This document shows, one piece after another, positions 7,306-61,839 of a stretch of 64,000 nt of DNA (position 1 is the first letter of the stretch; every line of letters begins with the position of its first letter). Origin of the DNA: Utricularia gibba. Its lineage: Eukaryota > Streptophyta > Magnoliopsida > Lamiales > Lentibulariaceae. Below the pieces are notes generated by a model. It saw nothing but the letters and a program-made list of their open reading frames with translations, was not told where the DNA came from and did not search any database. The stretch spans positions 372,001 through 436,000 of the forward strand of contig NEEC01000029.1 of assembly GCA_002189035.1 (NCBI GenBank), written 5' to 3'. The position numbers and the translations under genes are program-made.

Positions 7306-8133
7306 CTACTTGATCTTCTTCTTAACCCGCAACTGCAGCAGAGATATCAACAATAGCAACACTGGCTCAGGCTGCGAGAGAGAGAGGAAGACAGAAAATC
7401 CAAGGCGTCATCAAGATGCGAACCTGGTTGCTATGCCCACACTTCTTCTTCCTGCAGTTGACAGCTCTTGGGTGCAGCCGGGCATAGCATCTACACCATA
7501 TCAGATCACAAAGGAGTTTAAAAGCAAGCGCAAACATCCAGTTTCAGGGATGGATGGTGGGGGTTCGTTAGGGTCATTGATGAATGATTATACCACATCC
7601 CTTCCTATTCAAACTTCTAGCCAACTGAAAAAGCGCGTAGTGTTCCAAATCAAGCATTTAACAATTACAGGCACTTACTTGCGGCAGATCATTTTATCCT
7701 GATTATACTTCCTGGCCAGAGCCATAAGAGATGGCTCAATAATCCACCCCTGAGCCTCAGCACCAAATGGAGTGTGGATTCTGAAAGGAAAAAGTTTAAC
7801 TAATGTCGGCAACGGAACACTCCATGGGCATCAAAAAACAGGCACCTTTCTGGATGTTATAGTCCGCGAGTGTTCTTCCATCCTCGAGCTGCTTCCCGGC
7901 GAAAATCAAGCGCTGCTGATCCGGTGGAATTCCTGATACGCAAAGATCATTCAAAAGAAAAAAAAAAAAAAACACCGAAACAACACAGCCGTCATCACAA
8001 TCTAGAGAGGAAACCAAAGTCAAATCCTACCTTCCTTGTCCTGAATCTTAGCCTTGACATTATCAATGGTATCGCTCGATTCGACCTCGAGCGTGATGGT
8101 CTTTCCAGTGAGGGTTTTCACGAAGATTTGCAT
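7306..8133 (-). CDS. UBQ2: Ubiquitin-ribosomal protein eL40 fusion, with 1-base frameshift at the junction
   Basis: Five exons in coding order: 8031-8133, 7846-7932, 7679-7780, 7424-7490 and 7306-7332. Exons 1-3 encode a complete ubiquitin from [16 protein letters not shown] to HLVLRLRGG. It differs from the usual plant ubiquitin at a few sites (e.g. ESSDTIDNV). The eL40 part follows: [17 protein letters not shown], the zinc-binding Cys pattern of [22 protein letters not shown], and a Lys-rich end with Val where Pro is usual (QLRVKKKIK). eL40 is made as this precursor, cleaved after Gly-Gly, and joins the 60S subunit. One base is missing where Gly76 meets eL40 (near 7743-7745), so the literal frame leaves eL40 immediately after RGG. 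All splice sites and the eL40 exons are otherwise intact, so a sequence error is likelier than a dead gene. The symbol follows Arabidopsis UBQ1/2 and is approximate. Confidence 0.9.
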
Positions 8134-8175
8134 CTCGTCTGCGCCGTTTAGCCGCCAAGAAGTGTTCCATCCTCG

Positions 8176-8242
8176 TTTATATATCAAGAACTAGGGCTTC
8201 TGTCTGAAACAGCAGGCCCAGTTTCGTCCTACAAAAAGCCCA
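8176..8242 (-). promoter_or_regulatory. Core promoter of the ubiquitin-eL40 gene: TATA box and site II motifs
   Basis: Read on the minus strand, ATATATAAA (8176-8184) lies about 45 bp upstream of the ATG. TGGGCC (8215-8220) and TGGGCT (8237-8242) lie further upstream. An AAGCCCTAG element at about 8191-8199 resembles a telo-box. Site II plus telo-box is the known signature of plant ribosomal-protein promoters, which fits the gene. The use of these sites is inferred. Confidence 0.6.
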
Positions 8243-58142: not shown

Positions 58143-59045
58143 GGATAATAGGGGAGAAACTGCAGGTGCAGGTATCTCTGACTCCCTCCGAGCTTACCCC
58201 ACCAGTGCCTGGTGCTCCCTTGTACGATCATTCGACACGGCATTATTTACATGGAAGCAGTGACCCTTCGGGCGAGGGACCAATTGTGGGCTGCTAAAAT
58301 AGAGAACATGTTTCAGCCGCCAAGCCACTTGGGAATTTCCTTTTCTGGTTGATGCATATACACAATTTTAGAAGCAATAAATGTAAACCATCCGGAAGCA
58401 GTGAAATCGCGAAATGCCTGGACGTATTTCTTTCTCTGGGGGGGTCTGAGCGAAGAACTGGAGATGGCCTTTTTGAGTTTTGTAGGAAAAGTGTGAAATC
58501 ATCGCTGGTTTACGAGAAGTATGCTTCGTTGATCGGTTGATTTTTTTAGGGAGTGAGGTGGGATTTGGGAATTCCAAACCGATCATTTGATTTCGGATCA
58601 TCGGATCCTGACACCCATATATATATACGTTGCCTGCTGTTGCGGTCCCACCCGAATGCATAGCACGCTCCATTTGTCCAGGGTTTTTGTTTTAAAAGTC
58701 GTAATAATCAAACAAGCTTCCAGTGGAATTGCAAGTTGCGTTTGAGGAACACACGTGTGGTTAAAACAGTGTTCCGTTTGCCAAACACGTGGCTGCTGTA
58801 AACTTGTAATTGCAATTCCTCGCTTTCACTTCACCCTCTCTGAGAGGAAAGTGCTCCGGAGTATGCGAGGGCTGTAGAATTCATTCGAGGGTGGGATCTT
58901 GAGCGCCATGATCCCATCTGTGCTGATGTCCACCTGAAATCTACATTATCCCTCTTCCCCCTTTGTGTCTATTCTCCCTTTCTGGTCTCCGGGTTTAGAG
59001 ACATCTGGGTTTAGGTTGGGAAACTTATCTTGGGTACTTTTCCAA
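58143..59045 (+). other. Intergenic region before the MBD gene
   Basis: This holds the 3' flank of the MEKK-like gene and the upstream region of the MBD gene. TATATATATA near 58617-58627 is a simple tract. No gene is supported. Confidence 0.45.
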
Positions 59046-61839
59046 ATGGGTCTTCAAAATCCAGATTGGTTGCCAGCAGGTTGGAAAATTGAAGTCAAGA
59101 CTCGTAGTTGTGGAGGCCGTCGTGATAAGGTTTCTTTCTTTTTTTGTAATCATGTTATTCCTGTTGTTTGCACCTTTCCGTGTTTGTTGATGGAAAATTA
59201 ATTCTGTGGGAGAAGAAATGGGGTGTGTGGATCGCTGTCTGCATGACGTTAAGGACCTTGTTTTTATACAATTTATCGACATTCCGCTCTCTCATGGGGT
59301 TAGGGATTGAAGTGAAAAGTCAGACGATTCCTTCAATGAGAGGAATTTTACTCAAGTACAAGGCTCTGAACAAAAATGAGCCCAGTGCCTCAGTGAATAA
59401 GCAGCAATTTTTTACCGAAAAATCTCATCTTGTTTCCAAGCATGAACTAGGAATGGGCTAACGTGTCGGTCATAAAAATGTAAATTTGAAATTGGCGCAG
59501 TAATCCTGAGGGATCTCTACTATGGGAGCATGCGTAGCAGTGGTTCTTCTTTAGTTCTGTACATCATTTGCACAGCTTGGTTTTCTATGGGAAAAGTTTC
59601 ATGTGTCCGCACATTGGGTCATTGAATTTGTGCGGAGCCTACCTTCAGCGCTTCACTAGTTTTCCTGTTTTTCTTCTAGTATTACGTGTGCCCCGCCCCA
59701 CAAATGGATTGAAGTTGAAGTCCCAGCCTGAAGTTCTTCGATATCTCAATAGCTCGGGAAAATGTCAAACACCCATTAAGATTAAACAAGAAAATGCGAA
59801 GAAGGTTAACATCGCCCATTTCCCAAGTTTAGTTCCTTGTGTTTTAGCAGTGTGACCTTGGACCATTGCCCAGTACCTTGTATTGTATCTGGCGTCAGTG
59901 CTTCAATGTCATTCAACGTTGTAGGTTGGCGAAAAAAAGACAGTGGCTGATTTACCTGCGGCATGGATCAAGGAATTCAGAACAACAAGGAAGCGTGGCC
60001 ACAAGGCCAGAAGAGATCCGGTGCATATTCCTTTCTTTCTTTTTATGTTCCGTGCAATCTTTTTAATGCATCATGTTGGTTGTATTTCTTCTTGCAGCAT
60101 AATATCCATCCTGTCGGTGGGCATAGTTTCCGCTCAATCCCTGGAGACATGCACCACCTGCATTCTAAACTTGGAAAGATCAAGAAACTAAAAGATGAAG
60201 TGCATGTAAGTGCCGACTATTGGTTTCATTGTTCCTCATATCTCCTTTACACATTTGCTACTTCTAGTCATCTGCGAAGGCGAAACCACAGGCGTCACGC
60301 AACAAGAAAAATTATAGAAATCTATCCAACATCATGAAGTCAGGTTCTGATTTTTCGTTTTTATATTTCTTTATTGTCACTTCTTCAATTGGCTCATCAA
60401 TGTCCTTTTGTCAACTAGTCTTAGCAAGGTTTAGTTTTTCAAGGTCGGTATTGTTCGTTTATGAACCAGGGAAGAGGGTTGCAGATCGGGTGACTAGATC
60501 TCAGGAGAAAATCATGAATGTGGAGGATGACGAACAATTAGAGAAAAATGGAGATGATATTTCTCTAGAATGTGATCTCTCTAATAATCTGCAATTCTCA
60601 CTCAATGGAGTGAAACAAGAAGTTGATAATCTGCAAGTCATGAAAGTTGTGCGGAACCGGCTAGATGTTAGTGCAATATTGGATCGCAGACTGAAATCAG
60701 GTGCGCAATGATATCATTGTTAAGATTTGCATGGAAGGCATTGCAAATGGTCCTGCTGACACTATGAGCTCGGCACCTGCAGGATCAAAGGCAGCTGACT
60801 TGAAAACTGCAGATTTTATTTATGTGAAGCGGAGAAGCATCGAAAAGGAGCCCATGCATGCAAACCTTCCGGATAAGCAGCCTGAGGTAAATGAAGAGAA
60901 AGACCAAAGATATGGAAGAAGGAGAAGCAGAAGGTTGCATGAAGGCAACTTGAAGCAACATCAATCCATACATTCAGGTGCGTATCATATTCAATTGGGA
61001 TTCGACGATTTTTATGGAAATCTAGGACATACATCTGAGATTTTGATGTAATTATTTTCGCAAGATCAGAAAATGATGATGCAAAAGAAAGTTCCCAAAT
61101 CCTCCCAGAAATAGAAAGTCATCTTGGCGGAGAAGGAAATGAGCTATCCAATCTTAAACGGGAAAAAAGGTCAAGGGGCAAATGCTTTGCAAATGAATCG
61201 TTCTTTGGTAATCCAAAAAGATTAGCAGTTCTCATGGTTAGTTCTTCTGTGGAGCCACAATCCAGCAAGGAAGCCAGGGGAGATAAAGGAAAAGCAGATG
61301 AAGAAGGTATTGGTAGTAGACCCGGATCCTCATATGAGCCAGGGATCAGCGACCGCAGAAATCCTTCAGCAGAAAGGAACGGAAACCCGTCAGATCATGA
61401 GATGGGGGGCTCCGATGTGGTGGGAGATGTTCCATTTCCCGAAGGGGACAGAAATGTTGTCGATGCAACACCAAGCAGAAGCGAGAAGCAAGAAATATCC
61501 TCCTCATCGCCGTCGGTGTTGAAGGATCTGCTGATGGATCCATGCATAGAATTTGCAGTTAAAACTCTAACTGGAGCTATTACGATCGAAGATGTGAGGA
61601 ATATTGAAAGCAGCCTGATATTAGCGTATCCTTCAGCTTGCTCCTCCAGGTCCATGACTCCGTCAGGCGACATTTGGTCTGATCCTTGTTTTGAGTTCGC
61701 CGTCAAAACGCTCACTGGCGAACTCCCAATGGAGTGTGGATCAAAGCCCCAGGCTTCTTTCCATCAGTCAATGTTATCACCTAGGATCACGAGGTGCAGC
61801 AGCGGCATCAACAACGTCAGCTCCTCAAACCACTCATGA
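59046..61839 (+). CDS. MBD13: Methyl-CpG-binding-domain protein (MBD13-like), one-base frameshift in exon 2
   Basis: Eight exons: 59046-59129, 59680-59804, 59925-60020, 60098-60205, 60268-60343, 60470-60700, 60783-60977 and 61070-61839. With one base restored they give 561 residues. Two MBD-like modules are visible. The first reads DWLPAGWKIEVKTRS and KSQPEVLRYLNSSG. The second reads LPAAWIKEFRTTRKRGHK and HPVGGHSFRSIPGDM. A long charged region with basic patches (RYGRRRSRRLHEG) follows. Near the C-terminus DPCIEFAVKTLTGAI and DPCFEFAVKTLTGEL repeat the same motif. MBD proteins bind methylated or unmethylated CpG DNA in chromatin; the first domain's key residues were not examined. Exon 2 lacks one base in the C tract at 59691-59699. 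The symbol is a best guess. Exons 5-7 rest on splice sites rather than family matches. Confidence 0.8.

What the first reader, a model, noticed from the sequence alone, without database searches (positions are those of the whole stretch)
7306..61839. Seven single-base deletions, all at or beside G/C tracts, break six conserved genes
eL40 (near 7744), AAA-ATPase (10393-10395), BOBBER (29554-29558), ATX (34904-34908), ABCG (52964-52968 and 53516-53520) and MBD (59691-59699) each lose the frame by exactly one missing base at or near a C or G run. Adding one base per site makes the summed exon lengths divisible by three and restores family-conserved sequence on both sides. No insertion is seen. 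The bias and the otherwise intact genes point to consensus errors of a long-read assembly, not seven independent mutations. Literal ORF annotation would split or truncate these genes.
Basis: partly seen in the sequence, partly recalled or inferred. Interest (0 to 1): 0.65.

Follow-up and report, generated by a model that had tools for sequence, protein, structure and literature searches.

The report
Single-base assembly deletions splitting plant genes
Seven places where six ordinary plant genes lose their reading frame are almost certainly sequencing-assembly errors (one letter dropped, mostly in runs of G or C), and the same error recurs across the whole genome, so it is not biology but it can fake gene loss.

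Summary
All seven frame breaks are in the sequence at the stated places, each is one base short, and family-conserved sequence continues in the shifted frame. Paralogs in the same genome carry the extra base at three sites compared base by base: AAA-ATPase (CCCC against CCC), eL40 (GGG against GG), ATX.

The window lies in a 100-Mb, 516-contig plant assembly, most likely Utricularia gibba (PacBio-only, HGAP; identity inferred). The same breaks occur throughout it. In GRAS and UGT genes I curated 31 one-base deletions and no secure one-base insertion. A restored G/C run of at least 4 fits 65% of them, against 21% of simulated random deletions (p = 6e-6); A/T runs are not enriched. Near-identical overlapping contigs differ by almost no substitutions but by many one-sided deletions, which mutation does not explain. 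The same pipeline left 561 such deletions in a 2.9-Mb bacterium (PMC4888979).

Two of the seven 'tracts' are only two bases long, and BOBBER is the least certain site. Reads were not available.

The parts
7744..7745 (-). Frame break in the ubiquitin-eL40 fusion gene, right after the ubiquitin RGG end; GG in a place where a paralog has GGG
10393..10395 (+). Frame break in the AAA-ATPase (At3g28540-like lid domain); CCC where the 83%-identical paralog has CCCC
29554..29558 (+). Frame break in exon 1 of the BOBBER/NudC-like gene; run of five C (least certain site)
34904..34908 (-). Frame break inside the SET domain of an ATX-like histone methyltransferase; run of five G on the coding strand
52964..52968 (+). 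First frame break in the single-exon ABCG transporter gene; run of five C
53516..53518 (+). Second frame break in the ABCG gene; GGC, only a two-base run
59691..59699 (+). Frame break inside the methyl-CpG-binding domain gene; CCCCGCCCC

Best explanation
The seven frame breaks are residual consensus errors of a long-read assembly. In noisy single-molecule reads, run lengths of G or C (and sometimes doublets) are under-called, and the polished consensus keeps a run one base too short. The genes are intact in the plant. Shown here: the breaks exist, they are of one kind, they recur through the whole assembly, they favour G/C runs, and in redundant contigs the same stretch is written with and without the missing bases. 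Inferred: that the assembly is the PacBio/HGAP one of Utricularia gibba, and that each of these seven sites individually is an error.
For: Paralogs with the extra base at AAA, eL40 and ATX. Exactly two -1 events and no other lesion in ABCG. 31 deletions and no secure insertion in GRAS and UGT genes over many contigs. G/C runs of at least 4 in 20 of 31 events against 25 of 120 simulated deletions, p = 6e-6, with no A/T enrichment. C316 against C412: one substitution in 4.1 kb, all internal gaps in C316; C414 end and C416 start against C422: no substitutions, only missing bases. Equal identity before and after breaks. The same pipeline left 561 homopolymer deletions in 2.9 Mb (PMC4888979).
Against: No reads, transcripts or second assembly could be consulted. 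Two of the seven sites are at two-base runs. In the redundant contig C316 the missing bases also include A/T and longer gaps, so the error spectrum there is not purely G/C. Some surveyed genes with several stops (C3:261k, C244:2105k) may be true pseudogenes.
Confidence: 0.94

Rival explanations
1. True recent loss-of-function deletions: the plant's genome is deletion-prone and these genes are young pseudogenes, or broken alleles of one haplotype.
For: The likely species is known for genome compaction and gene fractionation after whole-genome duplication (PMC8333044), and some duplicate copies in this genome are decayed, such as the BOBBER copy on C213.
Against: No other lesion in the broken genes and no loss of identity after the break; no secure insertions; the density would mean about a third of GRAS and UGT members freshly broken; MBD has no other close copy and the BOBBER copy is decayed; redundant contigs show one-sided deletions without substitutions.
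Confidence: 0.04
2. Programmed -1 ribosomal frameshifting or transcript editing restores the frame in living cells.
For: The downstream frame is conserved at every site.
Against: By inspection none of the seven sites has a canonical X_XXY_YYZ slippery heptamer in the upstream frame; paralogs at the same positions are uninterrupted; the affected genes are unrelated.
Confidence: 0.005
3. Misjudged exon limits: one or more breaks are really introns or alternative starts, not missing bases.
For: BOBBER exon 1 is weakly conserved around 29554 and no intact paralog covers it.
Against: The only phase-compatible GT donor found from 29400 on lies at 29411, which would remove about 200 coding bases. The other six breaks lie inside conserved domains or single-exon genes.
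Confidence: 0.05

Closest known systems
Residual homopolymer deletions in PacBio HGAP/Quiver assemblies (example: Enterococcus faecium ATCC 700221, PMC4888979)
   Same: Single-base deletions at homopolymer runs left by the same assembler and polisher; 561 in 2.9 Mb, about 0.2 per kb, revealed by Illumina reads.
   Different: Here a plant genome, about 0.3 per kb of coding sequence in the UGT sample, with a measured preference for G/C runs over A/T runs; the passage read gives no base preference.
Gene-fragmenting indel errors in nanopore assemblies (Kastor study, PMC12007338)
   Same: False deletions dominate and follow homopolymers of about two to eight bases.
   Different: In that nanopore assembly A/T runs dominate; here G/C runs do.
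Unitary or young pseudogenes after whole-genome duplication
   Same: Frame-breaking lesions in otherwise recognisable genes.
   Different: No additional lesions, no decay, one lesion type only, and redundant contigs of the same locus disagree by missing bases.

Membership tests
Residual consensus deletion errors of a long-read assembly | Lesions are single missing bases, not insertions or substitutions | tested here: met
   7 of 7 in the window; 31 to 0 in GRAS and UGT genes with two unresolved calls
Residual consensus deletion errors of a long-read assembly | Enriched at homopolymer runs beyond what placement freedom gives | tested here: met
   20 of 31 against 25 of 120 simulated deletions at G/C runs of at least 4, p = 6e-6; A/T runs not enriched
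Residual consensus deletion errors of a long-read assembly | Spread over the whole assembly | tested here: met
Residual consensus deletion errors of a long-read assembly | The same DNA assembled twice disagrees by missing bases with almost no substitutions | tested here: met
   C316/C412, C414/C422, C416/C422; not available for the seven window sites themselves
Residual consensus deletion errors of a long-read assembly | Accurate reads carry the longer run at the site | not testable with these tools
   no reads held
Residual consensus deletion errors of a long-read assembly | Assembly made from noisy long reads without short-read polishing | tested here: inconclusive
Young pseudogene | Relaxed constraint or further lesions after the break | tested here: not met
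   ABCG identity 47/43/46% before, between and after its breaks; GRAS genes alike
Programmed -1 ribosomal frameshift site | X_XXY_YYZ slippery heptamer in the upstream frame | tested here: not met
   inspection of the seven sites; none fits

The most novel reading that the evidence does not exclude
The plant really carries a deletion-biased mutation process at G/C runs that has freshly broken about a third of the members of conserved gene families, with the proteins rescued or dispensable.
Probability: 0.02. Interest if true: 0.85.

Novelty: not a real feature. Interest (0 to 1): 0.2.

Why it matters
It is an artefact, but not a harmless one. At about 0.3 false deletions per kb of coding sequence, roughly a third of the genes in the two surveyed families read as broken. 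A plant studied for gene loss and compaction would then show spurious truncations and losses. Three DELLA-like genes, for example, all lose their frame at the same conserved stretch. Gene-loss, truncation and pseudogene statements resting on this assembly need read support.

Tried and rejected
WD40 gene at 14530-15218 looked like an eighth break because two overlapping ORFs lie in different frames; it is an ordinary intron (KYKG|PRSAGS), so it was rejected.

Most +1 calls of the frameshift aligner are intron borders (paired +1/-1, or extra length in UGTs) or several deletions seen as one shift. Two stay unresolved (L039 near 1090, L091). The 31 deletions were picked by me from the aligner's calls, with agreement of several references or high identity as the rule, so the list carries some judgement.

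The published truncated DCL3 of U. gibba (PMC8333044) was considered as a possible victim of this error. Four DCL loci exist; the one without a Dicer_dimer match (C213:2761967-2762970) fits the published truncation, which the authors support by 5'RACE. I found no evidence that it is an artefact.

The original assembly paper (10.1073/pnas.1702072114) is not held.

Queries: searches used continuous readings across the breaks; searches used X at the break, and one search also the pieces apart. The eL40 query was a typed generic plant sequence and proves nothing about the window. The ATX query joined exons that I read by eye, and in places it may hold family-typical residues instead of the window's own, so it is used only for the two sides of the break.

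Full report
WHAT WAS CLAIMED. Seven single-base deletions at or beside G/C runs break six conserved genes in one 64-kb window, and they are assembly errors rather than mutations.

WHERE THE WINDOW LIES. The window is G000:C508:372001-436000 of a genome of 100,091,633 bases in 516 contigs. Its genes are those of a flowering plant. Size and contig number resemble the PacBio-only, HGAP-assembled genome of the bladderwort Utricularia gibba (581 contigs, N50 3.4 Mb, 88x; PMC5793159). A unitig of 6.8 Mb named in PMC8333044 fits contig C451 (6,822,880 bases). The species is inferred, not shown.

THE SEVEN SITES. The ABCG gene is a single exon with an intact, 46%-identical paralog elsewhere in the same genome (C505:930714-932411). 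A frameshift-aware alignment of window DNA to that protein finds exactly two -1 events, at 52969 and near 53520, and nothing else. Arabidopsis ABCG16 aligns across both. The AAA-ATPase has an 83%-identical, fully open paralog at C213:195685-197112 that reads CCTCCCCAAGCC where the window reads CCTCCCAAGCC. The eL40 gene has two paralogs; the C213 copy reads GGGGTGGGATTATTGAGCC where the window reads GGGGTGGATTATTGAGCC. In the ATX gene the SET profile is matched at positions 1-21 in one frame and 30-104 in the other, yeast Set1 aligns straight through, and the paralog at C451 has one more base. In the MBD gene the profile is matched at 10-38 and 39-60 in two frames. BOBBER is the least secure: the break lies in a weakly conserved linker, its exon-1 paralog on C213 is decayed, and the argument rests on exon phase and the absence of a nearby fitting donor. 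Two of the seven 'tracts' (eL40, second ABCG site) are runs of two bases in the text as it stands.

LOCAL OR GENOME-WIDE? I searched the whole genome with two gene families that are mostly single-exon or have few introns. The GRAS search lists many genes split into adjacent matches in different frames, on many contigs. The UGT search supplied 30 more loci. With the frameshift-aware aligner and intact members of the same family as references, I curated 31 single-base deletions and no secure single-base insertion. Two calls stayed unresolved (L039 near 1090, L091). By that curation at least 17 of 46 GRAS places and 9 of 30 UGT loci are affected. The density in the UGT sample is 13 events in 40.6 kb of aligned coding sequence, about 0.3 per kb. 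Three DELLA-like genes (C375, C142, C2) all break at the same conserved GGPP(T)FR stretch, in two of them at a run of five or six C.

IS THE G/C-RUN BIAS REAL? Placement freedom can make any deletion look as if it sat in a run, so I simulated 120 random single-base deletions in intact GRAS and UGT genes and put them through the same placement procedure as the 31 observed events. A restored G/C run of at least four is compatible with 20 of 31 observed events and 25 of 120 simulated ones (Fisher p = 6e-6). For A/T runs the numbers are 7 of 31 and 23 of 120 (p = 0.42). The bias towards G/C runs is therefore real. In the window five of seven sites meet the same mark (p about 0.006).

ERROR OR MUTATION? 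Three lines favour error. First, this assembly contains the same DNA twice in places. Contigs C316 and C412 differ over 4.1 kb by one substitution, while every internal gap lies in C316, the smaller contig, including GG to G, C4 to C3 and C5 to C4. The end of C414 and the start of C416 differ from C422 by no substitution and only by missing bases. Biological divergence would give more substitutions than indels, and gaps on both sides. Second, broken genes show no decay: identity after the break equals identity before it, and the best alignments of the 30 full GRAS loci hold no in-frame stop. Third, genes without an intact close paralog (MBD; BOBBER) are broken in the same way, so redundancy does not explain tolerance. 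The mechanism has a direct precedent: with the same assembler and polisher, 561 single-base homopolymer deletions were found by Illumina reads in a 2.9-Mb genome (PMC4888979).

WHAT REMAINS OPEN. No reads, transcripts or second assembly could be consulted, so the error status of each individual site is inferred. Some surveyed genes with several stops (C3:261k, C244:2105k) may be true pseudogenes. A heterozygous broken allele at one or another of the seven sites is not excluded. In C316 the missing bases also include A/T and longer gaps, so the spectrum in that small contig is broader than in the large ones.

RIVALS. True young pseudogenes fail on the absence of decay, the uniform lesion type and the redundant contigs. 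Programmed frameshifting fails on the absence of a canonical slippery heptamer at any of the seven sites, on uninterrupted paralogs and on the unrelated nature of the genes. Misread exon limits remain conceivable only for BOBBER.

VERDICT. It is a known kind of artefact, here shown to run through a whole assembly. Its interest is practical: gene-loss claims from this genome need read support.

Noticed in passing
C375:1928k (L033), C142:1759k (L034), C2:1407k (L035): Three DELLA-like GRAS genes all lose one base at the same conserved GGPP(T)FR stretch, while two further DELLA-like genes (L010, L012) are intact there. A literal annotation would call three DELLA genes broken.
   Followed up: partly
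C316:29914-34041 (L018) and C412:852287-856414 (L019); C422 (L027), C414:3444760-3445020 (L084), C416:370-470 (L095): Redundant, near-identical stretches on different contigs of the same assembly that differ almost only by missing bases in one copy: a built-in test set for consensus errors.
   Followed up: partly
C213:171165-200000: This stretch carries paralogs of the window's eL40, AAA-ATPase (both intact), BOBBER (decayed) and an ATX exon: probably the duplicated partner segment of the window from a whole-genome duplication.
   Followed up: partly
C213:2761967-2762970: The one of four Dicer-like loci without a Dicer_dimer match nearby, in line with the published truncated DCL3 of U. gibba (PMC8333044); no sign was found that this truncation is an assembly artefact, and the upstream region was not read.
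   Followed up: partly
window 7744-7745: Read literally, the eL40 break falls just after the RGG end of ubiquitin, so the broken gene would still encode a complete ubiquitin with a wrong tail and lose only the ribosomal protein (inference).
   Followed up: no
window 44702-45787: BAHD acyltransferase of the spermidine hydroxycinnamoyl transferase kind (best PDB match 6lpv); the 361-aa open frame is intact over the part compared.
   Followed up: partly
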